From Arenicola marina (Eukaryota; Annelida; Polychaeta; Arenicolidae): a DNA stretch of 64,000 bases. The stretch's first letter is position 1; every line of letters starts with the position of its first letter. The notes beneath the pieces were generated by a model, which made no database searches, was not told where the DNA came from, and worked only from the letters and a program-made list of their open reading frames with translations. The stretch covers positions 14,380,334 to 14,444,333 of the forward strand of contig OZ025256.1 of NCBI GenBank assembly GCA_964019135.1, written 5' to 3'. Positions 5,378 to 55,080 of the stretch are shown here, in pieces. Position numbers and translations under genes: made by a program.

Positions 5378-5577
5378 NNNNNNNNNNNNNNNNNNNNNNN
5401 NNNNNNNNNNNNNNNNNNNNNNNNNNNNNNNNNNNNNNNNNNNNNNNNNNNNNNNNNNNNNNNNNNNNNNNNNNNNNNNNNNNNNNNNNNNNNNNNNNNN
5501 NNNNNNNNNNNNNNNNNNNNNNNNNNNNNNNNNNNNNNNNNNNNNNNNNNNNNNNNNNNNNNNNNNNNNNNNNNNNN
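5378..5577. other. Assembly gap (200 N)
   Basis: Exactly 200 N characters. The round number suggests a scaffold gap of arbitrary size, directly before a long G-rich polypurine tract that could be hard to sequence. Confidence 1.
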
Positions 5578-14842: not shown

Positions 14843-16738
14843 CAACAATTGTATATAGTATGGTACGGTCTTTTTTCCTTATTTCCTAACTGCCGCTTTT
14901 CAATTACTAAAAGATGGTCATATCTCCTTCAATGATAGCGGCGTGCCGCGCGGGTCTGATGCAGTGCATAAATTCCATAGGCGTTGCCTTATTTGCGTTG
15001 CTAAGCAACTTTCGCACCCTGCCTCCCGCGCCTTAACGTTTCTCCCTTGTTGTTTCGCTATGGCATAGTGAACTGAGACAGAAAATGGTGACGTACAAGA
15101 AACAGGACCCCCCTGTGAGAGGTAGCCCAATTGCTTCATAATGCGTATAATGTGTATCTATGTACGTGTCTGTTTGTTTAGTCGTTTGTCGGTGTGGGGT
15201 TCGACCTACCCATCGCCTCGATAAACATTCCCACTTCCACAATGCCACAATTTGTTTCATGCATACCCCGGGCTTCCTGGATAGCTGATCAATTAATTGT
15301 TGATATATAATCTGCCGAGTCATTTCCCGTAAGATTATTAACATAAATAAATACGACCCATAATGTTTTTTCGTGATTGATGATATTCGGCCGAGGGAAA
15401 AAAATTGCGCATCAAGTAATCTAGGTCATTAGCCTATGGAGAGGGGGCTGGGCGGACCCTGCACCGCACGGCATATAGATTGTATGCATTGGCTTTTTTT
15501 GTTTCCAGACCCGTGTCTTGGTAGGATATTTTTGCATTCTCTCTATGGCGGGGAGGACAATGCCATGGGACTGTGTCGTTGTTTGTGAAGTCCTCGCCTG
15601 TCTCCCTCACGTCTCCTCTCACCAGACTACTTCCCTGTCCCCCAGAAATCTTTCATCGTACTCTCTTCCTTTGTTTTTGCAGGATCGAAAAGCTCTTTTT
15701 CATTTTGTTTTCATTTGTTTTCGTACTATAGTTGGTACATACGTGTATTTCGCCTGGATCAATTTCTGGTTTCTCCTGGATATAGTACTTCTACGCCTGG
15801 GTGTGCGCGTGCGTGTATGTACGTGTGTGTGTACATATCCTCAGCGTACGTACATACATACATCCGCACACACGCACACACACCTGATTGATTTTAACTC
15901 ATGGCTTCTTTCTTTCCTTTTCAACTCCACTAACGGTTGGGGCATTTGCAAGGACATTGGCAGCATCCCTTCCTATCGTGACTATGTATATTTCATAGCG
16001 CGCGAAGTGAATTAACGTTTTGAGCAAACTGTGGGCAATGACGTCATGTTGAGGAGATCCCAATGATGCTGATCTCTTGAGGGAACTACTTTCAGGGACG
16101 GGCGCCTAGGGGAGTTCACTGACGACTATCTGCTTCATAGGCGGGGCTACATAAAAAACGACCCACCACGACTGGGTAATACGGGCCTCCTAAGGCCCTT
16201 CGACACACTGTTGTCCGGCATTGAAGAAGCACAAACACCCCTTCTCCCAACGTTTTCACTAGCTCCTTATCTTCGGTATCCTTCTTGATGTTTACTTCTC
16301 ATTCTCATTCTTTGCTTTGGTTGTTGTTTTTCGTTTTTAGTTCATGGGTTTTTTCGCTACGCACCCTCTTGGTGTATATTATAAGGTCGCATGTTTTATA
16401 CCACTGGTATGATCACCTCCACATTGTCTGTGGTTCGTGTCGTCTAGTATGTCGTGACATTTCCTTGCAGAGTATCTCCCCGGGTTGAAGACACAATCGC
16501 CGACCTTCTTCGATTCTATTCTAAAAACGACCCGCCGATGTTGGGTAACGTCGTGTATTAATACTTAGACTGAGGAGAGTGGTGTTGCGGTAGATAGTCT
16601 GACCCACTAACGAGAATATCGGGCCAACTCCAGGGAGAACTTCCTCGGGATTGGCCGTCTAACACAAACTTTAGCGCATTGAGGGAGCACTCACTGCACT
16701 AACGGAATTTTTGAAGCTGCACTAAAGCAGAACAAGAA
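13375..16738. other. Non-coding, AT-rich
   Basis: It contains a (TA)n tract around 14810-14840 and a CA/TG microsatellite around 15800-15885. Two partly similar phrases with AAAACGACCC and TGGGTAA occur near 16155 and 16525. The open frame at 15518-16015 runs through microsatellite and shows no family signature. Confidence 0.45.
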
Positions 16739-17110
16739 CTAACGCATAACTGACATGCTTGAGTCTTTACTAACGCATAACTGACATGCTTGAGTCTTTA
16801 CTAACGCATAACTGACATGCTTGAGTCCTTACTAACGCAGAACTGACAGGCTTGAGCTGACTCATAACTGACATGCTTGAACATGCACTGATGCTTAATT
16901 CATATGTTTGAATATGTAATAACGCATAACTGATATGCTTGAGTATTTACTAATGCATAACTGACGTGATGTGTCATATACCGACCCATAACTGACATGA
17001 TTGAACATGCACTGATGCTTAATTCATATGTTTAAATATGTACTAACGTAAAATATGGACTAAAATATGTACTAACGTACTAACGCCAAACTGACATGCT
17101 TGAGCATGTA
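16739..17110. repeat. 31-bp degenerate minisatellite
   Basis: The first units (16739, 16770, 16801) are near-perfect 31-bp copies containing CTAACGCATAACTGACATG and CTTGAGT. Later units diverge and alternate with a longer variant containing CACTGATGCTTAATTCATATG, giving a higher-order pattern. The region is not coding. Confidence 0.85.
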
Positions 17111-18318: not shown

Positions 18319-18386
18319 ACAAACCCACAGAAGTAAAATTGGGAATATATGTAAACAGTTTTTACTCAATAAGTGAGCAAACAATG
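18319..18386 (+). CDS. Cys-loop anion channel subunit, exon 3 (first binding-domain strand)
   Basis: This 68-bp exon is flanked by ATTTTCAG and GTGAGT. It starts with two bases completing a codon and then gives 22 codons, KPTEVKLGIYVNSF then YSISEQTM. This is the first beta-strand region of the extracellular ligand-binding domain of Cys-loop receptors, equivalent to the IFINSFGSIAETTM segment of glycine receptors. The corresponding exon in vertebrate glycine receptor genes is, from memory, also 68 bp, and the end phase (0, after Met) is the same. It is constant in all predicted isoforms and joins to either 18831 or 20149. The exon is too short to be seen as an open frame; it was identified from splice sites plus homology. 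Confidence 0.88.
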
Positions 18387-18830: not shown

Positions 18831-19081
18831 GACTATAGTTTAAGCTTCTATCTGCGTGAATCGTGGAGAGATCCAAGACTAGAATTCCATCCTCTGCAAG
18901 TGATACGTAAGGGCAAACCGGACGCACTGACCACCATTAAACTAAATCATGACCATTGGAAGCAACTCTGGACGCCAGATGTATTCTTCCGCAACGAGAA
19001 GAAGGCAATGTTTCACACTGTGACCGTCAACAACCTCATGCTCACGTTAAACATCACAGGTCACCTGTGGTATGTCGCAAA
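18831..19081 (+). CDS. Cys-loop anion channel subunit, alternative exon 4a (loops D and A)
   Basis: A 251-bp exon between GTGCGCCCAG and GTAAGT, entering at phase 0 and leaving with two bases of a Lys codon. It encodes DYSLSFYLRESWRDPRL (loop D strand, with the Arg equivalent to glycine receptor Arg65), a variable linker, then WKQLWTPDVFFRNEK (loop A) and a strand ending LTLNITGHLWYVAK with an N-glycosylation sequon (NIT). The linker is seven residues longer than in exon 4b. Paralogous to 20149-20378 and in the same phase, so the two are interchangeable. Joining 4a to 4b gives Lys-Thr-Thr-Gln-stop, so they cannot both be used productively. The apparent stop at 19085 is intronic. Confidence 0.92.
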
Positions 19082-20148
19082 GTAAGTCCGCGAGATGGCG
19101 CCACTGTGCGGCGACCCTGGCATGTGGAGTGAGTCGGTCGATCAGTCCGCTGTGGCTGAGTGCTTCCAACGAGCATGGCGTTATACAGCCCAACATGTGT
19201 GCATGCTCAAAAGCCTTTATTAATAATCCCACTCGGAATGATGCTGCGAGCCGTTTGCTTCGTTGATGACCCAGACCGCTAACCATCCATAAAGTACAGA
19301 GGGCCAGTTTGCGTGACAAGTAACAGAGGGACCTATTACTTAATGCCAGTTTATAGGTATGAGAGTATAGATGCCCACAAGTGGCTCAAGACCCGCCCCC
19401 CCCCCTCCCCCGCTGGGCGCTGAGTTAGACCAATCATTGAAACAAAATGGTTGTTGCACACGAGGGTTTAATTGGGCCAGATATATAATTGAGTGGTCTA
19501 TGAGCAAGCGACTAATACGCAGCGACACTAAGGAGACTTTCATAGCATAGGCGCAAAGTTCTAGGGTCGACCAGTTGATAGCTCCTCCGACTTTTGTCCA
19601 GTGACGACACACTTATACGGTCAGTAGCCGCGAGGTAAATTATGGGGGACATTACTTTCACAGCAAGCGCTTCTAAAATATCTCTAAAATATAGAGGTTT
19701 AGATAGCGAGACGTCAACATATTATCCAATTTTGAGCCCGCCCTTTTACAATCACCTGACTGGAATCAAGAATCTCACAGACTGCATTAGCTAACCATGA
19801 AGTTTCCTCAATTCTGCAACACATTTGCATGATTTTTGATCCAAGTTATCATTCTTCAACTTTTCTTTTACTTGGCGTGGGTTAAATATTAGTAAAGTTT
19901 TAATTTGACTTTACCCATATATATTCCTTTCTTTTCTTCCCTTGTGCATGCTACCTTATATATCACTTTCACATGATTTTTATGTTTCCACTAATCTGGT
20001 TGCTTGTTTCATGAACGTCTCTGTGTCTTATCCGCGTGTCCCTCCCCTCTTCACCGCGGTACCAACCAAACTGGTACCAATTATTACTGAGACCGTTCAG
20101 CCCAAATAACCTCTCACTTTCCGATGGCTTATCTTACAACGCTGCCAG

Positions 20149-20378
20149 GACTACTCAGTGAGCATGTATCTCCGGCAACAGTGGCGAGATCCCCGGCTTG
20201 CCTTTATGCCCAAAAACGCCCAGACTGTGAAGCGGAGACTGGGCAACCAGTTCTGGAAGCAAATTTGGGTACCTGACACATTTTTCCGGAACGAAAAACG
20301 TGCCACGTTTCACGAAGTTACCGTGGAAAATCGACTTCTCACGCTGAATTCCACTGGTTTACTTTGGTATGTCACCAA
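20149..20378 (+). CDS. Cys-loop anion channel subunit, alternative exon 4b (loops D and A)
   Basis: A 230-bp exon between GCTGCCAG and GTGAGT, in the same phases as exon 4a. It encodes DYSVSMYLRQQWRDPRL, then WKQIWVPDTFFRNEKR and LLTLNSTGLLWYVTK. It keeps the loop D Arg, the loop A Trp and Pro-Asp, the FFRNEK signature and the NST sequon at the same place as exon 4a. It is closer in length to the vertebrate glycine receptor exon (about 224 bp) than 4a, so 4b is probably nearer the ancestral form. Differences from 4a in the linker before loop A and after FFRNEK could alter agonist or interface properties. It lies 1067 bp after exon 4a. Confidence 0.92.
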
Positions 20379-21214
20379 GTGAGTATACTAACCAAAGTCA
20401 TACCGTATTTGTACCAATACACGCGCATGTATATATGTATACTCGCCCGCACAGGGCGTGGGTGGACCTTTATCGTCGCGCCAACGACGCCATCTTGTGG
20501 CGCCGTCTGCACGGAGCAATATTGTACCGCTGCCGGAACTACTTTCGGAGAATCGCAGTGAACACTACAAACGCACGCGTTGTGACAGCGTGAGAGCACC
20601 ATTTTTTCTTTTGAATTCTGATTTGAAAAATGTCTTAAATTAAGGCATGGGATTTTTCAGTAAGGACAAATACAATACGTCATCCCTCAACTATGTCGCA
20701 CCCAAAGCCTTTCATTTTTCGTCAAATGGGGACTAGGTTATAATTGGATTACAAACATTATGTTGCAATTTCTCTTTCGTACAGCAGCGTTCTAAGCTTG
20801 ATGGGTGCATGTGCGCACGGGATTCCGGGGAAAGATCCTTCCACTTCCGCCACCCCCTCCCCTCCACCCTAACCCTAACCGTGTGCATGTTTTAACAGAG
20901 TGTTAAGTACTAATAATTATGATATATAATTATGCAGACCAAGTTCCACAATAAAAATAAATATAGACTACCTATTCTTATGAATTGTAGTGGCGTGCAC
21001 GATTTAATTGGTATTTTGTAACCAGTGATGCAACGTTTGTCGGTAATTGATCCATGCATTTTGTCTGATTAAAACACGTGGTATCTGTTTAATGTAATAT
21101 AAGTAATCGATGAACCGTGCGCTGTACGACAAATATATCTTAGCTTCTCGAAATGACCTTGCTTACCAACAATTAGAGGTTATATACTTATTTAAATGTT
21201 AACTATATTTTCAG

Positions 21215-21297
21215 AATATCTGCAACATTATCATGCCCAATGAAGCTTCATAAATACCCACTTGATACCCAGACGTGCCCGATGATGTTTGAAAGCT
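21215..21297 (+). CDS. Cys-loop anion channel subunit, exon 5 (Cys-loop)
   Basis: An 83-bp exon between ATATTTTCAG and GTGAGT. Completing the split Lys codon, it reads ISATLSCPMKLHKYPLDTQT, then CPMMFES and one base. It contains the signature Cys-loop: two cysteines separated by exactly 13 residues, with the canonical aromatic-Pro-x-Asp (YPLD). The loop couples ligand binding to the pore. The vertebrate glycine receptor exon with this content is also 83 bp by recollection. If both exon 4 copies are skipped, this exon is read out of frame and stops after about a dozen codons. It is constant in all predicted isoforms. Confidence 0.93.
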
Positions 21298-21446
21298 GTG
21301 AGTATTGTCGCCCTCGCCCCCCCCCCTTGTTTTATACTTAAGGAATTACAACCAGCGCCGAAGCCGATTCGCATCTTAGTCTTGTTCTTCTTACGATGGG
21401 GGTTCGATATGCCTTACACTGTTGACCAGCTCTGTTTCACTTTCAG

Positions 21447-21578
21447 TTGGGTACACCATGGACACAATGTATTTTTCATGGTTGGATTCACCTGTTGACG
21501 TGGATCCAGCCGTGCAGCTTCCCCAGTTTAGCCTCAAAGATAAAGTATTATACGATTGCTCGCAAAACTACACCGCAG
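21447..21578 (+). CDS. Cys-loop anion channel subunit, exon 6 (loop B to loop C start)
   Basis: A 132-bp exon between ACTTTCAG and GTAAGT, only 149 bp after exon 5. It starts by completing Phe and encodes (F)GYTMDTMYFSW, the loop B region (FGYT is conserved in glycine receptors). It then reads LPQFSLKDKVLYDCSQNYTA and ends with one base of Gly. The Cys in YDCSQNYTAG is the first half of the second disulfide of glycine-receptor-type subunits; its partner lies in whichever exon 7 is used, with the ten-residue spacing kept. NYT is a possible glycosylation sequon next to loop C. Translation continuing into the intron is not coding. Confidence 0.93.
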
Positions 21579-23313
21579 GTAAGTTCAACGCCATTGACGC
21601 GAACAAAATCCTATATTATCACATCACCAAACGCAAAGTTTTAAGTAAATCATGATCACCATTTAATTCGTCTGTGATTAATCATTTCTGGGAATTAACT
21701 TGCCATTACGTCACTACCTGTATGCATTACTACGCGTATGGCGACTATGACTAGAAGCATATACATCAGATATTCTGATTAACAAATAAATGGACATATT
21801 TTATTTTATAATGAATACATGCTACATTTCAGTCCTTGGTTACTTGGTTATAATTCGTCGGTATACAGTACCATGGCTGAAATATTTATGTCATAATAAA
21901 TTCCTTGACGAGTTGATCTAATGTTACTGCCATTTCAGCCACACCTGGTTGAAGACATATTATCTTCATTATTTGAATTATATGTATTAAGCTATTATCC
22001 TAGGTCATTTATATTTTGTATTTTCATTTATCACTGACTGGGATTAAAATGTATTTGAATTACCCCTAAGATATTAGCATTATACATGTCTTAGCTATTT
22101 GGTGTCAGAGTGGGTGTCTAGCTTCTAATGTGTGGAGAATGCACTGATATGATATCCATTAACACATGGTTATTCCTTTTTGAAGAATTGTGGCAAGTGT
22201 TAATTAAATTAATTAATTTGGTTGATAATACAATTAAGGAATAGGACAGTGCTGATGTTATAATATTAGTACCAACATATTATTATGCGCCACAATATTC
22301 AGGAAGGCATGACCAGCAACAAGGTCTTGATAACACACCCTTTACTAGCATATTCACTTAACCGTATGCCATAGCGTTGATTTAGCACACCATGTCAATG
22401 TTATTTAACGCTGTGAGTTTGAGGTGATGACTTACAGTCTTTGCTAAGAATAATCGGTTTGAACACTTCGGGAACCTAATGAATATTGAACTCCGACCAA
22501 TACTTATTTCTAGGATCCAATGGTTCCCTAAACTTTATTAGTTTTTTACCTGGAAAGAGCTTATAAGAGTCGGAGGTCATTGGTCGAAAGGTTCCTAAAA
22601 GTGTCATCTGCTCATTTGGCAATTTGTCCACTAAGTCTTATAGATGGAGATTATGTAATTAGGTCCTTGTTGCATAACTATGCCTATGTCCTGTAGAATG
22701 AAGGGACATATATATTAAATATACTTTTGCCAGACATTTATTGTCTGGAAGCTTGGCCGTCTTGCGCGCTTGGCCATCCAAAAACGGACGCCGCTGCCGA
22801 CTGTTGCCGTTTAACATAACGTTATAAAAAAAGTCAGGCAAAGTGTCCTGTACATTTTTTAAGACAACATTATATTATATGTGGAAAATTGCTGTATGAG
22901 CAGCCTTGACCTTGCGCTTGTTTGATGGACATTGCAATAGGTGGCGCTGACTGCCATGAAACACCCGATAGACGCCTTTCGATGTCTTGCACTCTGATGA
23001 GCGTAATCGTGACACTTTATTATGATAATTAAATAATAATATAATAACAAGTTGGTGCAAATCACGGACATCGGAAAAATGCCGGATCAAAAGGCCCTGT
23101 GGTGTGTTCCATGACGTCATCAATGCGCGTCTCTGCGGCCGCTTCCCGCGGTTACCTGGCAACGAGTAGAGCGAGGGGTGTTGTGGGGAGGTTTTTTTTG
23201 TCGGATTTGTTGGTTTTTTTGGGGGGGAAAGGCAGGAATGTCCGAGTTAAAAGTCTCGTGTTTGATCATCTCGTCGCCTGGCTTGCATCTGTGCCTGTGT
23301 TCCTCCCTCTTAG

Positions 23314-23720
23314 GGGCCTTTCCGTGTCTCCAGATCAGCTTCGTCCTGCGCCGGGACGTCGGCTATTTCCTGATCCAGGTCTATGTCCCCAGTATCCTGA
23401 TTGTCATTCTGTCGTGGATATCATTCTGGATCAACGTGGATGCTATCCCGGCGCGCGTCACGCTGGGCTTGCTCACTGTCTTGACGGCGACGACGCAGAG
23501 CACGGGCGCCAACGCCTCCCTGCCACGTGTCTCCTACATCAAGGCCATCGACGTATGGATGTCCATGTGTCTCCTGTTCGTCTTCAGCGCCCTTGTGGAG
23601 TTTGCCGTCGTCAACGTCATATCCCGGAAAGGGGTGCGGACAGGGTCATCTAGACGGCGCCCCTTGCCGCCGCACACCCCCATTAAGCGACTCGAATATG
23701 ACGGCCAGTTGGTGGACCAG
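23314..23720 (+). CDS. Cys-loop anion channel subunit, alternative exon 7a (loop C end, M1-M3)
   Basis: A 407-bp exon between CCCTCTTAG and GTAGTT. It begins (G)[19 protein letters not shown], giving the second Cys of the loop C disulfide, then M1 ([20 protein letters not shown]), M2 ([20 protein letters not shown]), the M2-M3 linker [15 protein letters not shown]3 ([20 protein letters not shown]) and a basic, Pro-rich start of the cytoplasmic loop ending in Asp-Gln. Pro-Ala-Arg at the start of M2 is the anion-selectivity signature of glycine, GABA-A and GluCl channels. M2 position 6' is Leu and 2' is Thr. Phases match exons 7b and 7c. Vertebrate glycine receptors split this region over two exons; here it is one. 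Confidence 0.94.
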
Positions 23721-26082
23721 GTAGTTAGTTAGTGCACCACCCACCCCCCCCCCCCCGCCCCCCACACACACACTCCCGACCCGTCCGCTCGCTGAGACCA
23801 CCCCCCGCCACGCCCCGCCCCGCCCCGCCCCGCCCCGCCCCGCCCCGCCCATGATCACGTCGAATACGTATCATTCACCGCTATTCACGACCACTACCAT
23901 CACACACCGCCACTGCCACCACCGCTCTATCACCACCCCATTCGCGATGCGTCCGGAGAGGCGGGGCGGGTCGTATCCACTCGGCCTCTCCATTGACCCC
24001 AACGGTAGGCCGTATATAGATGCAGACCATGGATGTCGTCGACCAACGGGCAGGACAAGCATGTGACGTCACGTCAGTTTTAATGACGTCACAGTGATCT
24101 AGCCAATGAACGCGCGCCATCGCTAATCAACACTTGGGTCCATTTGAGGGACTCTCTGCAAAGAGTCTTTTAAATGAGCCCAACTAGTAGCTGGCATATA
24201 TTTATGAAATTAGCGTATTATTTTCTTTCATTTTAAGTCATTTTACACGTATTATATATGAAAAAAAAGCTACGTGGGTTTTGCCGATGAAATGTCAAGT
24301 CCCTACTAAATTCGAAAATAGTGTAATATTATCTAAATTACATCGGTTTCCGTGCAAATGAAGGAAAGGCGTAAAACAAAGCAGGGTGCCACTCTGTCGA
24401 AGGGTTCGGGTATATATACGGGTCTTTTTTTTGCCGATCTTTTTAATTCCTTCCGGCTTCTGATCTGCTATTCGATGTTCTCTATTCCATGCTCTTACTA
24501 TCTCTGCCCCCTTTTTATCTTGGAATCCGGCCTTTGCTGCCATTGCTAAGATTTTGCATTTAAATCGGCATTTTCCGTTGATCGCTTCCTTCATTTTATC
24601 TCCGGTGTTTTGGTTTCATTTTAGATGTTTACTTGTTGTTCCTACCGTACGTCCAGTTCTGTCCGCCGCGTTCGCACTTACAAATCACTCGCGCTGCATT
24701 CTGGGACATCGTTCGCCATATCTACCCCCAGCCTGCTACATGTATATCTCGCCTTGTTTACAATGTCATCTTGATAAGTCGTCAAGCTTTTCTTCTTTCT
24801 TTCAGAGGACAGTCATGATTATCTCTGGGAACTCCTTGTCATCTTCCTCGAATTCTCTCTAACTATCTTTCTTTCGTCAAGGATCTCGGCCCTGTTCTCG
24901 TTTCTTGAGGAGTTTTGTGTTATCATGATGATCGGGTCAGTTATCGGGTATTGCCGTGGTACATGCCGTAGTTTTGGCGCTTAATTGCCGCGCGTGTACC
25001 GCCCAAGACTCTGGCTTACACATGGGCACTGTGTCGCCGCGGAACAGCGTTCTCAGTAGCATTCTTGTCCACAGGTGGCGCTTTTGGCGATTGCTTTTTC
25101 GTTTGTTTGTTTTTCCACTCTCATGGTACATACTCGGCGCAGGATACTCTAATCATCGTCTTGCACTGCATGGACAGAATGACTAACATAGGCCTGTTCT
25201 TTACTCGATGTCTTTCAAGTAGAACCCTCCTTCTTCTTCTTCGCCTCCCTGACCCTACTAATAAGGATTGTCACACATCAAACATGTAGATTTGCACTCA
25301 ATTGTTGTATGCAGTGAGACCCATTATGACACATGTCTTCCCCGGGGTCTTATTACTTGCTTTGAAACCAACACGCTCAGCTGTTTGACTTTTTGCAAAC
25401 AAATATTACAATGTTTTTTATATTCAGGACATTTTGTAGAGTGCCTATTTTATGTCTCACTCTTCAAATTTATTGCAGATGTTTGATATATATTAATGAT
25501 ATATATATATTATACGGGGTTTCGATATATAATAAGCACTTTAATTATTCCTTCTTTTTTTATTTCTCCTTTTCATTTTTCTCAATCATGGATACAACTT
25601 TTAGGTAAATTTCTTTACACTTCATATCAGGGACTGCGAGGGTATTTTTCAGCGATTACATTTTTAACCCTTAATCTTTTATGCGGCCTTCCTGCAATTA
25701 TAGCAGTGATGTTGATATCAATGTCGCGGGAAGGGATTGGGGAAGGATATTGAGTTCATTTTGTTGAAAAAAACCGGGAATAGTAATTTGGCAACAGCCT
25801 ATCGCGGAAATAGCTCTAACCAGATCTTGCAATTTAACAAATTTGCTGCTCATGGTCGGGTTACATTCCCTATCGCTCACCGTGCAGCCCCTATCCTCTC
25901 AAATGTGAAATACCCCAGTTATTTATATCTAAAGACATCGCCACATGTTGTATTTCCAGGACGCCTCCCATTTTCCCAATAATCTATCAATTTAATTTTC
26001 TGGCTGACCTCTCAACTGTCTGCCTTCTCTTGTAAGCTATCCCCGTTTTTTTTGTCTCTCTCTCTCTCTCTCTTCTTAATAG
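23721..26082 (+). other. Intron between exons 7a and 7b
   Basis: It holds a C-rich segment with a (CGCCC)n pentamer array at about 23807-23850, two TGACGTCA sites (24064, 24083), a (TA)n tract near 25490-25510 and a TC-rich polypyrimidine tract just before the exon 7b acceptor. No further channel exon copy was seen. Confidence 0.6.
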
Positions 26083-26477
26083 GCGCCTTCCCCTGCCTCT
26101 CCGTTGAGTTTGTCCTGCGTAGAGAGATCGGCTACTTCCTGATCCAGATTTACATCCCGAGTATATTGATAGTGATTCTATCCTGGGTCTCCTTCTGGAT
26201 CAACATTGACGCTATTCCGGCTCGCGTCACGTTCGGTCTGCTCACTGTGCTGACCACCACCACTATGAGCACTGGCGCGAACGCCTCCCTGCCACGTGTC
26301 TCCTACGTCAAGGCCATCGACGTATGGATGTCCATGTGTCTCGTGTTCGTCTTCATTGCCCTCTTGGAGTTCGCCGTGGTCAATGTGATCTCTCGCAAGG
26401 GGGCGCGCACGGTGAACCCGGTCCGGCGACCTCCTCCGCCAATGCAACGCCTGGGGCCCGAGGGCGGCCTCGACCAG
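26083..26477 (+). CDS. Cys-loop anion channel subunit, alternative exon 7b (loop C end, M1-M3)
   Basis: A 395-bp exon between TTCTTAATAG and GTAGCC. It encodes (G)[20 protein letters not shown]1 ([20 protein letters not shown]), M2 ([20 protein letters not shown]), the linker [15 protein letters not shown]3 ([20 protein letters not shown]), and a short loop ending GGLDQ. Compared with 7a it has Phe at M2 3', Thr at 11' and Met at 14', and a shorter Pro-rich tail. It has the same entry and exit phases as 7a and 7c. Splicing 7a directly to 7b puts 7b out of frame with an early stop. Parts of the M2-M3 and M3 coding DNA are identical to 7a and 7c at synonymous sites, pointing to gene conversion. 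Confidence 0.94.
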
Positions 26478-28578
26478 GTAGCCACGCCACCAGCATAATA
26501 ATATTATAATATATATATATCTAAACCAAGCAACCAACCCACCCACTGACCCACCAAGGATCTTTTGCCGATCCCATGTTCCCACTCATCTTCCCCTTCC
26601 CCCTAACTATCCCTCTTCTTCAATACAATATTGCTCACCCCTACCGCCACCCCCCCCCCCCCCGCCACTTCGTTCCTTCCACCACCCCGTCACTACCCCT
26701 TAGGAAATATGGCCTTCTTCTTCTTCGCTCCAGCCTGTCTCCACCCCTGCCCTTCCCCTCGTGTTCAGGCCGCGATGGTCTCGGACGTTATCTTGCACTG
26801 AACAAGCCCCCAGGGCTGCCGTTCCTCCTGTTCATTGGTGTTAACGGTAGAGTTGTCATAGCTCAATGTCTTTTTTATATGACTCGCACGTTTTGCACTA
26901 TGTTTTTTCCCTTTTTTCTGTTCTCTCTTGGTTTTGGTTTATTTCTCCCGCTCTTTTGTTTTCTACCCTTCAACAACAGAATACTTAATTCAACGTTCAA
27001 GGACACGCCAAGTACTTACTTATACAATTACTGCACACTACACAATAACTATTAGCATGCAGCTCGCTTCGCTAGTTCGCACTAAACTACAAATTGGTTC
27101 CTCCATAACTTTAACAAATGACATTCCAAATGACCTTCCCAAGTCACGTGACCATGCTTGGTGGTGCGCTATTGGTGTCTGGCCTCGTTTTGATCTTTGC
27201 TATCTCTCCACCTCGTCCTATGGAGATCCTTGCTTCAGTATTAACTTGTTACTAACCTGTGTCGGGCTGTGTATTCCCGGTGAGCTTCGCGCGTGCGCAT
27301 TGCAAGTGCGCATCGGCTTGGCTTTCCCACATTGTTCCCGCTCCCTATATGATCCTGGTGAGTGGATTTGTCAACCATTGCCCAATCCATATACGGCCAC
27401 CTCTTTGATGCCACGAACATCAACAGAACTAAAACCTAACTATTTTCTTTCGTCGATCTTACCCGGTTTCTGCATTGGGCAATACTCCTGTGTTTGACCC
27501 TGTATTCATCCCGCTGTCCCAGTGGGGTCCCTTGCCTCGCTGTAGCCCGCGTGTGTCTCTTGTGGTCTGAAGCATTGGTCGAGGCTGCCATTCCATCAGC
27601 CGGACTCCGGACTCCGGTGTAGTCCGTACACAGACAACCAATGGTCAAAGCACCCAAAACAGTACTAGTAACGCCGCCACGTATTCACGTTTTTGTTCCC
27701 ATGGCGACTGTAAGGCTATTCCTAGTACGTCGTGGTTCTGAGGCCGATTTTGTGGTTTCTCCCGGAACCAGGGAACTCCCACGCTGAGTTGATAAGCAGG
27801 CGGCTGAGCAGCGGGTCGAAAGGTCGTGGGTTCGCGCCCCCGTTGCACTTGCCTCTCGGACATGTTTCATCCGGACCCCATTGCCATTGTCTCTGGATGT
27901 TTATTGGCCTAGTCTGTGCGAAATACAACAGTGCCCTAAACCAACAACATCTCATTTTTCTCTGCGTCTCCTTTTCTCATAGTGGTAGTTTCTCATTGGT
28001 CAGTGCGTGAGCCAATCACGACGTCGTGTCTCGCTGCCATCGGGTGGCGCTTCCGATCAGCTGCGATCTGTTGTCTTCCATGATGACTGATTGCTCCCTC
28101 CCTCTCGAACCTCCAAGCGGTCCGTTATTTAGCTGCTCCTCCAAGCCTCGTCCAGCCCAGGGTGGGGATTGGGTGTTTCGGTTTCGGAATTAGGCACAGA
28201 TGCAAGTAGTAAGGCTTCGAGAAATTGTGACCGGGTGGTTGTGGGATTGATAATCATACGCGAGACTCTCTGCCTTGAGGGTCTTTCTTTCCTAATCCGT
28301 TTGGCCTTTGCTTCCTCTTTCAGAAGCAATGGCTGCCTCAATAGGCAACTGACCGCACATCTGTCGTCTGTCTGTCTGTCTATCTATCTATCGATCTATC
28401 TATATATGCATTTATCTATTCCCCCCATCCAGAGACCGGGGATTGTGCTACCGTGCGTCTTCGTCATCGTCCCCCACGTAGAGCCGGAAGCTCCATAATA
28501 ATAACACTGATTATACGTTGTCTATTTGACTTTTGAGTCACTGTGTAATGTGTCCTTGGTCTGCCTCTCTCGCTACAG
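26478..28578 (+). other. Intron between exons 7b and 7c
   Basis: It contains a short (TA)n, a poly(C) run near 26648-26660, a tRNA-derived SINE head (27783-27842) and a TCTA microsatellite near 28375-28405. A 189-codon open frame at 26928-27497 shows no protein family signature and is treated as chance. Confidence 0.55.
27783..27842 (+). repeat. tRNA-derived SINE head
   Basis: An A-box-like CTGAGTTGATAAGC and a B-box-like GTGGGTTCGCGCCC occur at tRNA-like spacing. The B-box region resembles that of the - strand fragment at 3605-3672. The cloverleaf is incomplete. Similarity to other copies suggests a SINE family, whose 3' body probably extends to about 27930. Confidence 0.5.
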
Positions 28579-28991
28579 GCGCTTTCCCTTGCTTGGAAAT
28601 AGATTTCTACTTGGCCCGGGATATAGGGTTTTTTCTGATCCAAGTCTATGTGCCCACGATCCTGATCGTTATCCTATCATGGGTCTCCTTCTGGATCAAC
28701 GTGGAGGCAACCCCGGCCCGCGTGTCGCTGGGGCTGCTCACTGTGCTGACCACGACCACCATGAGCACCGGGGTGAACCAAAACCTGCCGCGTGTCTCCT
28801 ACGTCAAGGCCATCGACGTATGGATGTCCATGTGTCTCATCTTTGTCTTCGTGGGGCTCTTGGAGTTCGCGGTGGTCAACGTCATGTCGCGCAAAGAGGC
28901 CAAAGCTATGAAGAGAGCGGCGGCGGCCGCCGCGCCCCCACCCCCACCCCCCCTCAGGCGGGATGTGGAGCAGGGATGCCCAATGGACCAG
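28579..28991 (+). CDS. Cys-loop anion channel subunit, alternative exon 7c (loop C end, M1-M3)
   Basis: A 413-bp exon between TCGCTACAG and GTACTA. It encodes (G)AFPCLEIDFYLARDIGFFL, M1 ([20 protein letters not shown]), M2 ([20 protein letters not shown]), the linker [16 protein letters not shown]3 (VWMSMCLIFVFVGLLEFAVV) and a loop with six Ala and six Pro in runs, ending Met-Asp-Gln. It is the most diverged of the three copies: Ser at M2 2', Glu-Ala-Thr before PAR, and a different M2-M3 linker (VNQN in place of ANAS), which is a gating and allosteric region. Phases equal those of 7a and 7b. Splicing 7b to 7c creates a stop after seven codons. Confidence 0.93.
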
Positions 28992-32655: not shown

Positions 32656-32838
32656 ATAAATATAGTAGAGAATGGCACGGAGCGGACGCCGCCGACACCG
32701 CAACGTGGAGACATGGAGGGCAAACACAAAGCGAGGAAAATCGACAAGATTTCCCGGAAAATGTTCCCCCTCGCTTTCCTTCTCTTCAACATTGTGTATT
32801 GGATAGCCTACGGGGTGCCAAGCCAAGCTGGCGAATAA
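32656..32838 (+). CDS. Cys-loop anion channel subunit, last exon (M3-M4 loop and M4)
   Basis: The exon begins after ACTTTGCAG at phase 0, matching the Asp-Gln ends of exons 7a, 7b and 7c, and runs to a TAA at 32836-32838. It encodes INIVENGTERTPPTPQRGD, a basic stretch KHKARKIDKISRKMFPLAF and M4 (FPLAFLLFNIVYWIAYG) with a short extracellular tail VPSQAGE. The AKKIDKISR-like motif before M4 is a hallmark of glycine receptors and relatives. The whole M3-M4 loop is only about 70 residues. It is constant for all isoforms; skipping exon 7 entirely would read it out of frame and remove M4. No AATAAA was found close downstream. Confidence 0.93.
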   Translation: MNIVENGTERTPPTPQRGDMEGKHKARKIDKISRKMFPLAFLLFNIVYWIAYGVPSQAGE

Positions 32839-48995: not shown

Positions 48996-49550
48996 GAGTT
49001 TAGGAAAGAAGTAGAATCACTCAAACGATCTGTCGAATTTAACAGCAAAAAAATGCTGAAGTTCGAGAAGGAGAATCGGGAGCTGGGACAGCAATTCAAT
49101 ACCTTGACGCCATATTTGCAGCCACGGAAACACATGACAGGAAGGAAAATGTGGTGTTCCATGGAATCGGCGTGTCAACGTCGGGTAAATAGGAGTGTAC
49201 GCTGCTGATCCGGGAGATTGTCCAGAACAAGCTGGACCTACCCGGCGACATGAAGATCCAGAGATGCCACAGACTGGGCCAGAAGCCCAACTCGGATTCC
49301 ACTGGAGACAAGCAGCGAGAAAAAAACTGAGAAAAATAACAAATTTTGGTTTATACTCGCATGTTGTGTCCTACCGATTACCCGCTTCGTTCTTGCGGTC
49401 CAAATGACGTACGTTGCTGGCATAAAAGTATGGCGCCAGGCGACACCACGTAACTAGGGAGATATCATCCACCCCGTTATGCCTATTTTGCCCCACTTCC
49501 CCCACATCGAAGAAGACTTTCCTCGAGAGGTACAGGATCGCCGCCGGATC
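48996..49550 (+). pseudogene. L1-like retrotransposon ORF1 relic, coiled coil and RRM part
   Basis: With at least one frameshift and in-frame stops, the + strand reads a Lys/Glu-rich coiled coil (FRKEVESLKRSVEFNSKKML), an RRM-type segment (RKENVVFHGIGVS) and then LLIREIVQNKLDLPGDMKIQ followed by RCHRLGQK. It ends with the start of the C-terminal domain, EDFPREVQDRRRI. This order (coiled coil, RRM, CTD) is that of the nucleic-acid-binding ORF1 protein of L1-like non-LTR retrotransposons. The piece is truncated at its 5' end and decayed. Its CTD continues directly into the 63-bp tandem array and resumes after it. No ORF2 was seen adjoining. Confidence 0.8.
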
Positions 49551-52500
49551 CTGATTCCCGTCATGAGAGCGTCCCGCCGAGACGGACATCGGGCTACAGT
49601 GCAAGGTGACCGCCTGATTCCCGTCATGAGAGCGTCACGCCGAGACGGACATCGGGCTACAGTGCAAGGTGACCGCCTGATTCCCGTCATGAGAGCGTCC
49701 CGCCGAGACGGACATCGGGCTACAGTGCAAGGTGATCGCCTGATTCCCGTCATGCGAGCGTCACGCCGAGACGGACATCGGGCTACAGTGCAAGGTGACC
49801 GCCTGATTCCCGTCATGAGAGCGTCCCGCCGAGACGGACATCGGGCTACAGTGCAAGGTGACCGCCTGATTCCCGTCATGAGAGCGTCCCGCCGAGACGG
49901 ACATCGGGCTACAGTGCAAGGTGACCGCCTGATTCCCGTCATGAGAGCGTCACGCCGAGACGGACATCGGGCTACAGTGCAAGGTGACCGCCTGATTCCC
50001 GTCATGAGAGCGTCACGCCGAGACGGACATCGGGCTACAGTGCAAGGTGACCGCCTGATTCCCGTCATGAGAGCGTCCCGCCGAGACGGACATCGGGCTA
50101 CAGTGCAAGGTGACCGCCTGATTCCCGTCATGAGAGCGTCACGCCGAGACGGACATCGGGCTACAGTGCAAGGTGATCGCCTGATTCCCGTCATGAGAGC
50201 GTCACGCCGAGACGGACATCGGGCTACAGTGCAAGGTGACCGCCTGATTCCCGTCATGAGAGCGTCACGCCGAGACGGACATCGGGCTACAGTGCAAGGT
50301 GACCGCCTGATTCCCGTCATGAGAGCGTCACGCCGAGACGGACATCGGGCTACAGTGCAAGGTGACCGCCTGATTCCCGTCATGAGAGCGTCACGCCGAG
50401 ACGGACATCGGGCTACAGTGCAAGGTGATCGCCTGATTCCCGTCATGAGAGCGTCACGCCGAGACGGACATCGGGCTACAGTGCAAGGTGACCGCCTGAT
50501 TCCCGTCATGAGAGCGTCACGCCGAGACGGACATCGGGCTACAGTGCAAGGTGATCGCCTGATTCCCGTCATGAGAGCGTCACGCCGAGACGGACATCGG
50601 GCTACAGTGCAAGGTGACCGCCTGATTCCCGTCATGAGAGCGTCACGCCGAGACGGACATCGGGCTACAGTGCAAGGTGACCGCCTGATTCCCGTCATGA
50701 GAGCGTCACGCCGAGACGGACATCGGGCTACAGTGCAAGGTGACCGCCTGATTCCCGTCATGAGAGCGTCACGCCGAGACGGACATCGGGCTACAGTGCA
50801 AGGTGATCGCCTGATTCCCGTCATGAGAGCGTCACGCCGAGACGGACATCGGGCTACAGTGCAAGGTGACCGCCTGATTCCCGTCATGAGAGCGTCACGC
50901 CGAGACGGACATCGGGCTACAGTGCAAGGTGACCGCCTGATTCCCGTCATGAGAGCGTCACGCCGAGACGGACATCGGGCTACAGTGCAAGGTGACCGCC
51001 TGATTCCCGTCATGCGAGCGTCACGCCGAGACGGACATCGGGCTACAGTGCAAGGTGACCGCCTGATTCCCGTCATGAGAGCGTCACGCCGAGACGGACA
51101 TCGGGCTACAGTGCAAGGTGACCGCCTGATTCCCGTCATGAGAGCGTCACGCCGAGACGGACATCGGGCTACAGTGCAAGGTGACCGCCTGATTCCCGTC
51201 ATGAGAGCGTCACGCCGAGACGGACATCGGGCTACAGTGCAAGGTGATCGCCTGATTCCCGTCATGAGAGCGTCACGCCGAGACGGACATCGGGCTACAG
51301 TGCAAGGTGATCGCCTGATTCCCGTCATGAGAGCGTCACGCCGAGACGGACATCGGGCTACAGTGCAAGGTGACCGCCTGATTCCCGTCATGAGAGCGTC
51401 ACGCCGAGACGGACATCGGGCTACAGTGCAAGGTGATCGCCTGATTCCCGTCATGAGAGCGTCACGCCGAGACGGACATCGGGCTACAGTGCAAGGTGAT
51501 CGCCTGATTCCCGTCATGAGAGCGTCACGCCGAGACGGACATCGGGCTACAGTGCAAGGTGATCGCCTGATTCCCGTCATGAGAGCGTCACGCCGAGACG
51601 GACATCGGGCTACAGTGCAAGGTGACCGCCTGATTCCCGTCATGAGAGCGTCACGCCGAGACGGACATCGGGCTACAGTGCAAGGTGATCGCCTGATTAC
51701 CGTCATGAGAGCGTCACGCCGAGACGGACATCGGGCTACAGTGCAAGGTGATCGCCTGATTCCCGTCATGAGAGCGTCACGCCGAGACGGACATCGGGCT
51801 ACAGTGCAAGGTGACCGCCTGATTCCCGTCATGAGAGCGTCACGCCGAGACGGACATCGGGCTACAGTGCAAGGTGACCGCCTGATTCCCGTCATGAGAG
51901 CGTCACGCCGAGACGGACATCGGGCTACAGTGCAAGGTGACCGCCTGATTCCCGTCATGAGAGCGTCACGCCGAGACGGACATCGGGCTACAGTGCAAGG
52001 TGATCGCCTGATTCCCGTCATGAGAGCGTCACGCCGAGACGGACATCGGGCTACAGTGCAAGGTGACCGCCTGATTCCCGTCATGCGAGCGTCACGCCGA
52101 GACGGACATCGGGCTACAGTGCAAGGTGACCGCCTGATTCCCGTCATGCGAGCGTCACGCCGAGACGGACATCGGGCTACAGTGCAAGGTGACCGCCTGA
52201 TTCCCGTCATGAGAGCGTCCCGCCGAGACGGACATCGGGCTACAGTGCAAGGTGATCGCCTGATTCCCGTCATGCGAGCGTCACGCCGAGACGGACATCG
52301 GGCTACAGTGCAAGGTGACCGCCTGATTCCCGTCATGAGAGCGTCACGCCGAGACGGACATCGGGCTACAGTGCAAGGTGACCGCCTGATTCCCGTCATG
52401 AGAGCGTCACGCCGAGACGGACATCGGGCTACAGTGCAAGGTGACCGCCTGATTCCCGTCATGCGAGCGTCACGCCGAGACGGACATCGGGCTACAGTGC

Positions 52501-55032
52501 AAGGTGACCGCCTGATTCCCGTCATGAGAGCGTCCCGCCGAGACGGACATCGGGCTACAGTGCAAGGTGATCGCCTGATTCCCGTCATGCGAGCGTCACG
52601 CCGAGACGGACATCGGGCTACAGTGCAAGGTGACCGCCTGATTCCCGTCATGAGAGCGTCACGCCGAGACGGACATCGGGCTACAGTGCAAGGTGATCGC
52701 CTGATTCCCGTCATGAGAGCGTCCCGCCGAGACGGACATCGGGCTACAGTGCAAGGTGACCGCCTGATTCCCGTCATGAGAGCGTCACGCCGAGACGGAC
52801 ATCGGGCTACAGTGCAAGGTGATCGCCTGATTCCCGTCATGCGAGCGTCACGCCGAGACGGACATCGGGCTACAGTGCAAGGTGACCGCCTGATTCCCGT
52901 CATGAGAGCGTCACGCCGAGACGGACATCGGGCTACAGTGCAAGGTGATCGCCTGATTCCCGTCATGAGAGCGTCACGCCGAGACGGACATCGGGCTACA
53001 GTGCAAGGTGACCGCCTGATTCCCGTCATGAGAGCGTCACGCCGAGACGGACATCGGGCTACAGTGCAAGGTGACCGCCTGATTCCCGTCATGAGAGCGT
53101 CACGCCGAGACGGACATCGGGCTACAGTGCAAGGTGACCGCCTGATTCCCGTCATGCGAGCGTCACGCCGAGACGGACATCGGGCTACAGTGCAAGGTGA
53201 CCGCCTGATTCCCGTCATGAGAGCGTCACGCCGAGACGGACATCGGGCTACAGTGCAAGGTGACCGCCTGATTCCCGTCATGAGAGCGTCACGCCGAGAC
53301 GGACATCGGGCTACAGTGCAAGGTGATCGCCTGATTCCCGTCATGAGAGCGTCACGCCGAGACGGACATCGGGCTACAGTGCAAGGTGACCGCCTGATTC
53401 CCGTCATGAGAGCGTCACGCCGAGACGGACATCGGGCTACAGTGCAAGGTGACCGCCTGATTCCCGTCATGAGAGCGTCACGCCGAGACGGACATCGGGC
53501 TACAGTGCAAGGTGACCGCCTGATTCCCGTCATGCGAGCGTCACGCCGAGACGGACATCGGGCTACAGTGCAAGGTGACCGCCTGATTCCCGTCATGAGA
53601 GCGTCACGCCGAGACGGACATCGGGCTACAGTGCAAGGTGACCGCCTGATTCCCGTCATGAGAGCGTCACGCCGAGACGGACATCGGGCTACAGTGCAAG
53701 GTGATCGCCTGATTCCCGTCATGCGAGCGTCACGCCGAGACGGACATCGGGCTACAGTGCAAGGTGACCGCCTGATTCCCGTCATGAGAGCGTCACGCCG
53801 AGACGGACATCGGGCTACAGTGCAAGGTGACCGCCTGATTCCCGTCATGAGAGCGTCACGCCGAGACGGACATCGGGCTACAGTGCAAGGTGACCGCCTG
53901 ATTCCCGTCATGAGAGCGTCACGCCGAGACGGACATCGGGCTACAGTGCAAGGTGATCGCCTGATTCCCGTCATGCGAGCGTCACGCCGAGACGGACATC
54001 GGGCTACAGTGCAAGGTGACCGCCTGATTCCCGTCATGAGAGCGTCACGCCGAGACGGACATCGGGCTACAGTGCAAGGTGACCGCCTGATTCCCGTCAT
54101 GAGAGCGTCACGCCGAGACGGACATCGGGCTACAGTGCAAGGTGACCGCCTGATTCCCGTCATGAGAGCGTCACGCCGAGACGGACATCGGGCTACAGTG
54201 CAAGGTGACCGCCTGATTCCCGTCATGAGAGCGTCACGCCGAGACGGACATCGGGCTACAGTGCAAGGTGATCGCCTGATTCCCGTCATGAGAGCGTCAC
54301 GCCGAGACGGACATCGGGCTACAGTGCAAGGTGACCGCCTGATTCCCGTCATGAGAGCGTCACGCCGAGACGGACATCGGGCTACAGTGCAAGGTGACCG
54401 CCTGATTCCCGTCATGAGAGCGTCACGCCGAGACGGACATCGGGCTACAGTGCAAGGTGACCGCCTGATTCCCGTCATGCGAGCGTCACGCCGAGACGGA
54501 CATCGGGCTACAGTGCAAGGTGACCGCCTGATTCCCGTCATGAGAGCGTCACGCCGAGACGGACATCGGGCTACAGTGCAAGGTGACCGCCTGATTCCCG
54601 TCATGAGAGCGTCCCGCCGAGACGGACATCGGGCTACAGTGCAAGGTGACCGCCTGATTCCCGTCATGCGAGCGTCACGCCGAGACGGACATCGGGCTAC
54701 AGTGCAAGGTGACCGCCTGATTCCCGTCATGAGAGCGTCCCGCCGAGACGGACATCGGGCTACAGTGCAAGGTGATCGCCTGATTCCCGTCATGCGAGCG
54801 TCACGCCGAGACGGACATCGGGCTACAGTGCAAGGTGACCGCCTGATTCCCGTCATGAGAGCGTCACGCCGAGACGGACATCGGGCTACAGTGCAAGGTG
54901 ATCGCCTGATTCCCGTCATGAGAGCGTCCCGCCGAGACGGACATCGGGCTACAGTGCAAGGTGATCGCCTGATTCCCGTCATGCGAGCGTCACGCCGAGA
55001 CGGACATCGGGGCGACAGTGCAAGGTGACCGC
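49551..55032 (+). repeat. 63-bp minisatellite, 87 units, expanded from L1-like ORF1 C-terminal-domain sequence
   Basis: There are 87 head-to-tail units of exactly 63 bp: the 87th starts at 54969, 86 x 63 bases after the first, so there is no net indel until a +1 insertion in the last unit. On the + strand each unit encodes 21 residues, LIPVMRASRRDGH then RATVQGDR, which continues the ORF1 relic frame (DRRRI|LIPV). After the array the CTD resumes as GDRLRIDRRLDTVN. Variation is almost limited to unit positions 16 (A/C), 24 (A/C) and 60 (C/T), all synonymous in this frame; unit 35 has one Pro-to-Thr change. The - strand is also open. Each unit has seven CpGs. Long frames here are repeat by-products unless transcription is shown. 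Confidence 0.97.
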
Positions 55033-55080
55033 CTGAGAATCGACCGAAGGCTTGACACCGTTAATTTGGTCCATCTTCCA
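55033..55080 (+). pseudogene. L1-like ORF1 relic, end of C-terminal domain
   Basis: Directly after the tandem array the ancestral frame, shifted by the single-base insertion in the last unit, reads LRIDRRLDTVNLVHLP. It completes the GDRL-x-ID-x-RLxT strand that typically ends the ORF1 CTD. It shows that the array sits inside, not beside, the ORF1 sequence. Confidence 0.65.

What the first reader, a model, noticed from the sequence alone, without database searches (positions are those of the whole stretch)
18831..28991. One anion-channel gene with two tandem alternative-exon clusters (2 x 3 isoforms)
The gene carries two versions of the loop D/loop A exon and three versions of the loop C-M1-M2-M3 exon, all intact, all with splice sites, and interchangeable in phase within each cluster. 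Established: insect Rdl and GluCl genes use mutually exclusive exons in the ligand-binding domain. Alternative whole pore-domain exons in a glycine-receptor-like gene are, to my knowledge, unusual. Inference: a single locus could produce six subunits combining binding-site and pore variants.
Basis: partly seen in the sequence, partly recalled or inferred. Interest (0 to 1): 0.9.

Follow-up and report, generated by a model that had tools for sequence, protein, structure and literature searches.

The report
Worm channel gene with swappable exons
A glycine-receptor-like chloride-channel gene in what looks like a segmented worm carries spare, interchangeable versions of a signal-binding exon, of the exon that forms most of the ion pore, and of a short N-terminal exon, so one gene could probably make many different receptors.

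Summary
Confirmed at the stated coordinates: one glycine-receptor-like gene has two copies of exon 4 (loops D/A/E) and three of exon 7 (end of loop C, M1-M3), intact, with GT-AG borders and matching phase. Exons 3, 5, 6 and the M4 exon were found once. All alternative copies are 2 mod 3 long; 7 of 7 double inclusions tested meet a premature stop. Exon-7 copies show purifying selection (dN/dS 0.12-0.20). Upstream lies a third cluster that the finding does not mention: three exon-2 copies, well above shuffles; 18 of 18 combinations are open. Named top relatives are annelid or nemertean. A Ridgeia gene model joins two different pore exons, and two Lamellibrachia models, apparently from one contig, split the same layout. 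Most likely these are mutually exclusive exons; no RNA was available. The principle has precedents: insect nAChR alpha6 (2 x 3 exons) and C. elegans unc-49 (three pore modules). The layout, a pore cassette before one shared M4 exon in a glycine-receptor-like gene, matches neither. New variant of a known kind.

The parts
15069..15121 (+). exon 2a (alternative; N-terminal segment ELRQKMVTYKKQDPPVR), 53 bases; its acceptor is the least convincing of the three
   Evidence: profile score 18.0 with in-phase GT donor; acceptor inferred, chosen to fit the phase of 2b and 2c
16096..16175 (+). exon 2b (alternative; ...LLHRRGYIKNDPPRL), 80 bases; a shorter start at 16141 has the same phase
   Evidence: profile score 19.1 with in-phase GT donor; acceptor inferred
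16471..16544 (+). exon 2c (alternative; ...DTIADLLRFYSKNDPPML), 74 bases
   Evidence: profile score 21.6 with in-phase GT donor; acceptor inferred
18319..18386 (+). exon 3, found once, 68 bases
18831..19081 (+). exon 4a (alternative; loops D, A, E), 251 bases
   Evidence: matches PF02931 in the genome scan (C9:14399161-14399415)
20149..20378 (+). exon 4b (alternative; loops D, A, E), 230 bases
   Evidence: matches PF02931 in the genome scan (C9:14400473-14400721)
21215..21297 (+). exon 5, found once, holds the Cys-loop (C-x13-C), 83 bases
21447..21578 (+). exon 6, found once, loops B/F and start of loop C (loop names by homology, recalled), 132 bases
23314..23720 (+). exon 7a (alternative pore exon: end of loop C, M1, M2, M3, start of M3-M4 loop), 407 bases
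26083..26477 (+). exon 7b (alternative pore exon), 395 bases
28579..28991 (+). exon 7c (alternative pore exon), 413 bases
32656..32838 (+). exon 8, found once, M4 and stop codon, 183 bases

Best explanation
This is one annelid-type glycine-receptor-like anion-channel gene with clusters of tandemly duplicated, mutually exclusive exons. The transcript takes one of two exons 4 (part of the agonist-binding face) and one of three exons 7 (end of loop C plus M1-M2-M3), and probably one of three exons 2 (N-terminal segment before the first strand). The single exons 3, 5, 6 and 8 (M4) are shared. Shown from sequence: intact frames, GT-AG borders, matching phase, shared exons found once, purifying selection on the pore copies, and tandem pore exons in gene models of relatives. 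Inferred: that each copy is used, that two copies of a cluster are not kept together (double inclusion shifts the frame), and that the products are anion channels differing in agonist and pore properties. How the splice choice is made is unknown; no paired-intron signal was found in the exon-7 cluster.
For: Exon model, phases and 6 of 6 open combinations; 18 of 18 with exon 2. Four double inclusions and the exon-4 skip and three exon-2 double inclusions, 8 of 8, meet a premature stop. One copy each of exons 3, 5, 6 and 8 in the window at E <= 0.02. dN/dS 0.12, 0.20 and 0.17 (NG86; the YN00 method failed) at dS 1.2-1.3 among exon-7 copies. Pfam ligand-binding and membrane domains above cut-off in 3 of 3 isoforms scanned, of 6. 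Cys-loop, PAR motif before M2 and loop C cysteine pair kept in 6 of 6 isoforms. Best PDB match glycine receptor alpha-2, E 7e-111. Closest paralog in the same genome shows one exon 4 and one exon 7. Ridgeia P0004 holds two different exon-7 copies in one model.
Against: No RNA of this species was available, so use of any copy is unproven. Exon 1 and the start codon were not found in the window or about 20 kb upstream with a strict donor rule. A scan for shared intronic docking/selector words in the exon-7 cluster was negative. Skipping exon 7 altogether shifts the frame but met no stop in the stretch translated, so frame alone does not punish that event. For 4a/4b synonymous divergence is saturated and no dN/dS could be computed. 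P0006, an intron-free frame on a 1283-base contig, reads through the homologous donor to a stop, which fits a shortened product. Trees do not show one-to-one ancestry of the window's pore exons with the Ridgeia copies.
Confidence: 0.82

Rival explanations
1. unc-49 style: the pore copies serve as alternative 3' ends, or the locus is several tandem genes, each with its own terminator.
For: Reading on past the donors of 7a and 7b meets a stop at the 4th and 7th codon. P0006, a 1283-base contig with an intron-free frame, reads through the homologous donor; gene models P0024, P0044 and P0060 do too.
Against: Only one M4 exon (32656-32838) and one set of exons 3, 5 and 6 were found, so a product ending after 7a or 7b would lack M4. 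No AATAAA or ATTAAA lies between 23028 and 31106, but none lies from exon 8 to 34500 either, so this argument is weak.
Confidence: 0.07
2. Some copies are unused relics of exon duplication, and one exon 4 plus one exon 7 do all the work.
For: No expression data. Donors of all three exon-7 copies lack the consensus G at +5, whereas donors of exons 3, 4a, 4b, 5 and 6 have it.
Against: All copies are open, keep the signature cysteines and PAR motif and show dN/dS 0.12-0.20 at dS 1.2-1.3 for exon 7. 4b groups with a Helobdella exon rather than with 4a (98/96, in a tree flagged as short of columns), so two exon-4 types may have been kept for a long time.
Confidence: 0.1
3. The copies are an assembly artefact (collapsed or repeated haplotypes).
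For: Double-pore models with near-identical copies occur in the protein database: P0078 (Marmota) and P0121 (Elysia).
Against: Window exon-7 copies differ at 22-32% of aligned residues, and the 500 bases on either side of them share only matches of 12-25 bases.
Confidence: 0.01

Closest known systems
Insect nicotinic receptor alpha6 gene (Drosophila, Tribolium, Ceratitis)
   Same: Cys-loop receptor gene with two mutually exclusive binding-domain exons (3a/3b, loop D) and three pore-region exons (8a/8b/8c, part of M2); all six combinations seen by RT-PCR in Tribolium (passages of PMC2064938 and PMC6393475).
   Different: Nicotinic (cation-channel) branch; exon 8 is described as holding part of M2, not M1-M2-M3 plus the end of loop C; no exon-2 cluster is mentioned in the passages read.
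C. elegans unc-49 GABA receptor locus
   Same: GABA-gated receptor; one shared N-terminal part joined by alternative splicing to three alternative transmembrane parts, with distinct pharmacology (passages of PMC6920096).
   Different: There the alternatives are 3' blocks of exons encoding the whole C-terminal part; here they are single cassette exons that would splice to one shared M4 exon, and a binding-domain choice comes in addition.
Insect RDL and GluCl genes
   Same: Anion-channel genes with alternative exons in the ligand-binding domain; Tribolium RDL makes 3 x 2 = six forms (passages of PMC2064938).
   Different: No alternative pore exon is described in the passages read.
Vertebrate GLRA2 (exon 3A/3B)
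   Same: Glycine receptor with alternative exons in the extracellular part (passages of PMC3484359).
   Different: Two copies of one exon, products differing by two residues; no pore alternatives described in the passages read.
NALCN exon 15a/15b (snail and other invertebrates)
   Same: Mutually exclusive exons that replace a pore region; the species with the second pore type are said to include annelids (passages of PMC3557258).
   Different: Unrelated channel family; swaps one selectivity-filter region.
Alvinella pompejana Alpo5/Alpo6
   Same: Annelid receptors over 45% identical to glycine receptor alpha1/alpha2, anion-selective, opened by glycine, GABA and taurine (abstract and passages of PMC4801368).
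   Different: No splice variants mentioned (0 hits for 'splic' in its main text). Their sequences were not compared with the window gene.

Membership tests
Glycine-receptor-like anion-selective Cys-loop receptors | Ligand-binding and transmembrane Pfam domains | tested here: met
   PF02931 and PF02932 above cut-off in 3 of 3 isoforms scanned, of 6
Glycine-receptor-like anion-selective Cys-loop receptors | C-x13-C loop, second cysteine pair at loop C, PAR motif before M2 | tested here: met
   6 of 6 isoforms; one cysteine of the loop C pair is in shared exon 6, the other in each exon 7
Glycine-receptor-like anion-selective Cys-loop receptors | Closest solved relatives are glycine receptors | tested here: met
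   the 17 best PDB rows are glycine receptor alpha chains (isoform 4b_7a)
Glycine-receptor-like anion-selective Cys-loop receptors | Gated by glycine or a related amino acid, chloride current | not testable with these tools
   needs recording; annelid Alpo5/6 do this (passages)
Mutually exclusive exon cluster | Adjacent homologous exons of like length and identical phase, with splice sites | tested here: met
   clusters 4 and 7; cluster 2 with inferred acceptors and more variable length, 53-80 bases
Mutually exclusive exon cluster | Double inclusion harmful | tested here: met
   all copies 2 mod 3 long; 7 of 7 double inclusions tested meet a premature stop
Mutually exclusive exon cluster | Transcripts hold exactly one copy | not testable with these tools
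   no RNA of this species
Mutually exclusive exon cluster | Competing intronic pairing (docking site and selectors), where that mechanism applies | tested here: inconclusive
   no excess over 60 shuffles for the exon-7 cluster; exact words only, single genome, clusters 2 and 4 not scanned
unc-49-type alternative 3' modules | Each pore alternative has its own C-terminal block including M4 | tested here: not met
   one M4 exon only, 32656-32838
Insect nAChR alpha6-type gene | Nicotinic cation-channel subunit | tested here: not met
   PAR anion motif and glycine-receptor affinity

The most novel reading that the evidence does not exclude
Three independent mutually exclusive clusters in one receptor gene (N-terminal segment x agonist face x pore) give up to 18 subunits, so a worm neuron can choose binding properties and pore properties separately; tandem pore exons in siboglinid tubeworms suggest this is an old annelid strategy.
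Probability: 0.4. Interest if true: 0.75.

Novelty: new variant of a known kind. Interest (0 to 1): 0.57.

Why it matters
If confirmed, one gene would make a combinatorial set of inhibitory receptors in which the agonist-binding face and the chloride pore are chosen independently. It would add a case in the glycine-receptor branch to two known cases in other Cys-loop branches (insect nAChR alpha6, nematode unc-49), and so point to repeated evolution of the same solution. It would also explain odd public gene models: a double-pore protein in Ridgeia and a gene apparently split in two in Lamellibrachia.

Tried and rejected
Separate genes: rejected because exons 3, 5, 6 and 8 were found once. Assembly duplication: rejected by divergence. 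Competing RNA pairing between introns of the exon-7 cluster: no signal; exact words of 8-11 bases shared by both inner introns and complementary to intron 6 or to the intron before exon 8 numbered 0-3, against means of 0-2.5 in 60 shuffles. Local gene conversion: a 35-base stretch (23539-23573) is identical in all three pore exons; longest-run permutation p was 0.012 (7a/7b), 0.0014 (7a/7c) and 0.0006 (7b/7c), but the nearest paralog has only 3 mismatches there, so conversion and constraint cannot be told apart. One-to-one ancestry of 7a/7b/7c with the Ridgeia copies: unresolved. Exon 1: nothing with a strict donor. The promoter scan uses a bacterial model and says nothing about an animal gene. 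A suspected alternative pore exon at C13:22.26 Mb looks like a split pore. Rfam: no match. Structure prediction was not run. The species was not identified; 'annelid' rests on the protein relatives.

Rows dropped: exon-7 tree used 63 rows; from P0001-P0067 plus P0072 and P0094, eight were left out by hand, three did not match the pattern, and three Owenia duplicates were removed. Tree: 15 rows picked by hand. Exon-4 tree: 59 rows from P0001-P0066 plus window and paralog rows; four left out by hand, eight did not match the pattern.
Full report
Gene and organism. The window lies at 14.38-14.44 Mb on sequence C9 of an 867-Mb genome. Of 4198 protein matches to isoform 4b_7a, 120 were listed; among the first 25 the named ones come from Ridgeia, Hirudo, Owenia, Helobdella, Dimorphilus, Capitella, Lamellibrachia (annelids) and Tubulanus (a nemertean; placements recalled); the best, an unnamed one, is 70% identical over 99% of the query. 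The best solved relatives are glycine receptor alpha subunits (best E 7e-111).

Observation. The exon model reproduces every junction in the finding. Constant exons: 3 (18319-18386), 5 (21215-21297), 6 (21447-21578), 8 (32656-32838). Alternative exons: 4a (18831-19081), 4b (20149-20378), 7a (23314-23720), 7b (26083-26477), 7c (28579-28991). All their borders are GT-AG. Lengths of 68 and 83 for exons 3 and 5 equal those I recall for vertebrate glycine receptor genes (recalled, not tested). All 4 x 7 combinations are open to the final stop (6 of 6). Four double inclusions (4a+4b, 7a+7b, 7b+7c, 7a+7c) and one skip (exon 4) run into a premature stop; skipping exon 7 shifts the frame without meeting a stop in the part translated.

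More than chance, and constrained. tblastn of the exon peptides over the window gives 4a-4b cross-matches at E about 1e-27 and 7a/7b/7c cross-matches at E 7e-65 to 5e-47; beyond these only one minus-strand match with a stop inside appears for these exons (E 0.006). Exon-7 copies share 102/131, 91/134 and 92/131 residues, with dS 1.2-1.3 and dN/dS 0.12, 0.20 and 0.17 by NG86 (YN00 failed), so the copies are old and under purifying selection. For 4a/4b (46/74 residues) dS is saturated. Each of the 6 isoforms keeps the Cys-loop, the loop C cysteine pair and the PAR motif before M2. Pfam finds both domains in the 3 of 6 isoforms scanned.

A third cluster. Searching with N-termini of relatives gave weak hits upstream of exon 3. 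A 12-residue profile built from 35 relatives' exon-2 ends, with the required in-phase GT donor, gives three strong plus-strand hits in the 18.3 kb upstream: 21.6, 19.1 and 18.0. The next is -7.5, the minus strand reaches -8.0, and about 20 kb further upstream reach -13.8 (plus) and -8.9 (minus); the best hit in 100 shuffles averages -3.7, with a maximum of 8.6. The 35 rows themselves score 8.6-34.9, so the three copies sit in the lower part of that range. Without the donor rule the next window hit scores 10.2, so the donor matters. The likely exons are 15069-15121, 16096-16175 and 16471-16544; acceptors are inferred and were chosen to share a phase. All are 2 mod 3; 18 of 18 combinations are open, and 3 of 3 double inclusions of exon 2 meet a stop. 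Exon 2 might instead be tied to alternative promoters; exon 1 was not found. The nearest paralog has two exon-2-like candidates, scoring 12.5 (donor one codon earlier) and 9.9 (donor in phase); these are no better than chance hits without a donor and remain tentative.

Genome control. Fourteen places in the genome encode a nearly full-length pore exon (105 or more of 132 positions) at 47% identity or more to 7b; three are this gene, and the other eleven lie singly, the closest pair 14.6 kb apart with an exon-4 match before each. Two more distant matches (28% and 34%) were not counted. The tool calls such counts lower bounds. Of six paralog stretches of 9-9.5 kb fetched, all six show one exon 4, and five show one pore exon; the sixth (L040) splits the pore and has two tandem M3 exons with matching phase and plausible splice sites, a second alternative-pore candidate in the same genome.

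Other annelids. Ridgeia P0004 is one model holding two different pore exons in a row, joined through letters that look intronic. Placement on one contig is inferred from the equal length. In Owenia, models P0007/P0016 and P0022/P0031/P0036 are identical on both sides but differ in exon 6, so related genes have tandem copies of another exon. In trees, 7a/7b/7c group together (96/58) next to the first Ridgeia copy (83/91), while the second Ridgeia copy falls elsewhere; with the M3-M4 tails added the picture is unresolved. 4b groups with a Helobdella exon (98/96), not with 4a. Both large trees are flagged as short of columns.

Mechanism. The best reading is mutually exclusive splicing in each cluster, with frame shift spoiling double-inclusion products. 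How choice is made is unknown: no docking/selector signal in the exon-7 cluster. Donors of exon-2 and exon-7 copies all lack G at +5, whereas those of exons 3, 4a, 4b, 5 and 6 have it, which would fit regulated use or weak use. Differences among the pore exons include 2' (Thr in 7a and 7b, Ser in 7c), 3' (Phe in 7b) and 14' (Gln in 7a, Met in 7b and 7c); the numbering is recalled and functional effects are inference.

Known kinds. Insect nAChR alpha6 has the same 2 x 3 logic (passages of PMC2064938 and PMC6393475). unc-49 has three alternative transmembrane parts on one shared N-terminal part (passages of PMC6920096). NALCN swaps a pore exon (passages of PMC3557258). Annelid glycine-gated anion channels exist (abstract and passages of PMC4801368). 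In ten searches of the held library no title or abstract start shown names alternative pore exons in annelid or glycine receptor genes; the listings were capped, most papers were not opened (for instance the Hirudo transcriptome paper PMC6054404), and subscription journals are mostly not held.

Verdict. Real, functional-looking and larger than reported; a new variant of a known kind. RNA is the missing proof.

Noticed in passing
L040 (C13:19210000-19219500), minus strand, about 2788-2982 and 1543-1665: A paralogous receptor gene with a split pore has two tandem M3 exons, both phase 0 with AG/GT borders.
   Followed up: partly
L039 plus L048 (C9:3257500-3276300, minus strand): The closest paralog has single exons 4 and 7 but two tentative exon-2-like copies upstream of exon 3 (scores 12.5 and 9.9).
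   Followed up: partly
Proteins P0007, P0016, P0022, P0031, P0036 (Owenia): Gene models identical on both flanks differ in exon 6; two of them contain two exon-6 copies in a row.
   Followed up: partly
window 49550-55036: Minisatellite of about 87 copies of a 63-base unit, 98% matching, lying in a long open frame on both strands.
   Followed up: no
window 16738-17048: Tandem repeat of a 31-base unit in the intron between exon 2c and exon 3.
   Followed up: no
window 58314-60165: Open frames that look like repeated fragments of a LINE-type element (ORF1-like and reverse-transcriptase-like); judged by eye.
   Followed up: no
window 23539-23573, 26308-26342, 28804-28838: 35 bases identical in all three pore exons including third codon positions; gene conversion or constraint not resolved.
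   Followed up: partly
window 5378-5577: Run of 200 N beside proline-rich low-complexity sequence.
   Followed up: no
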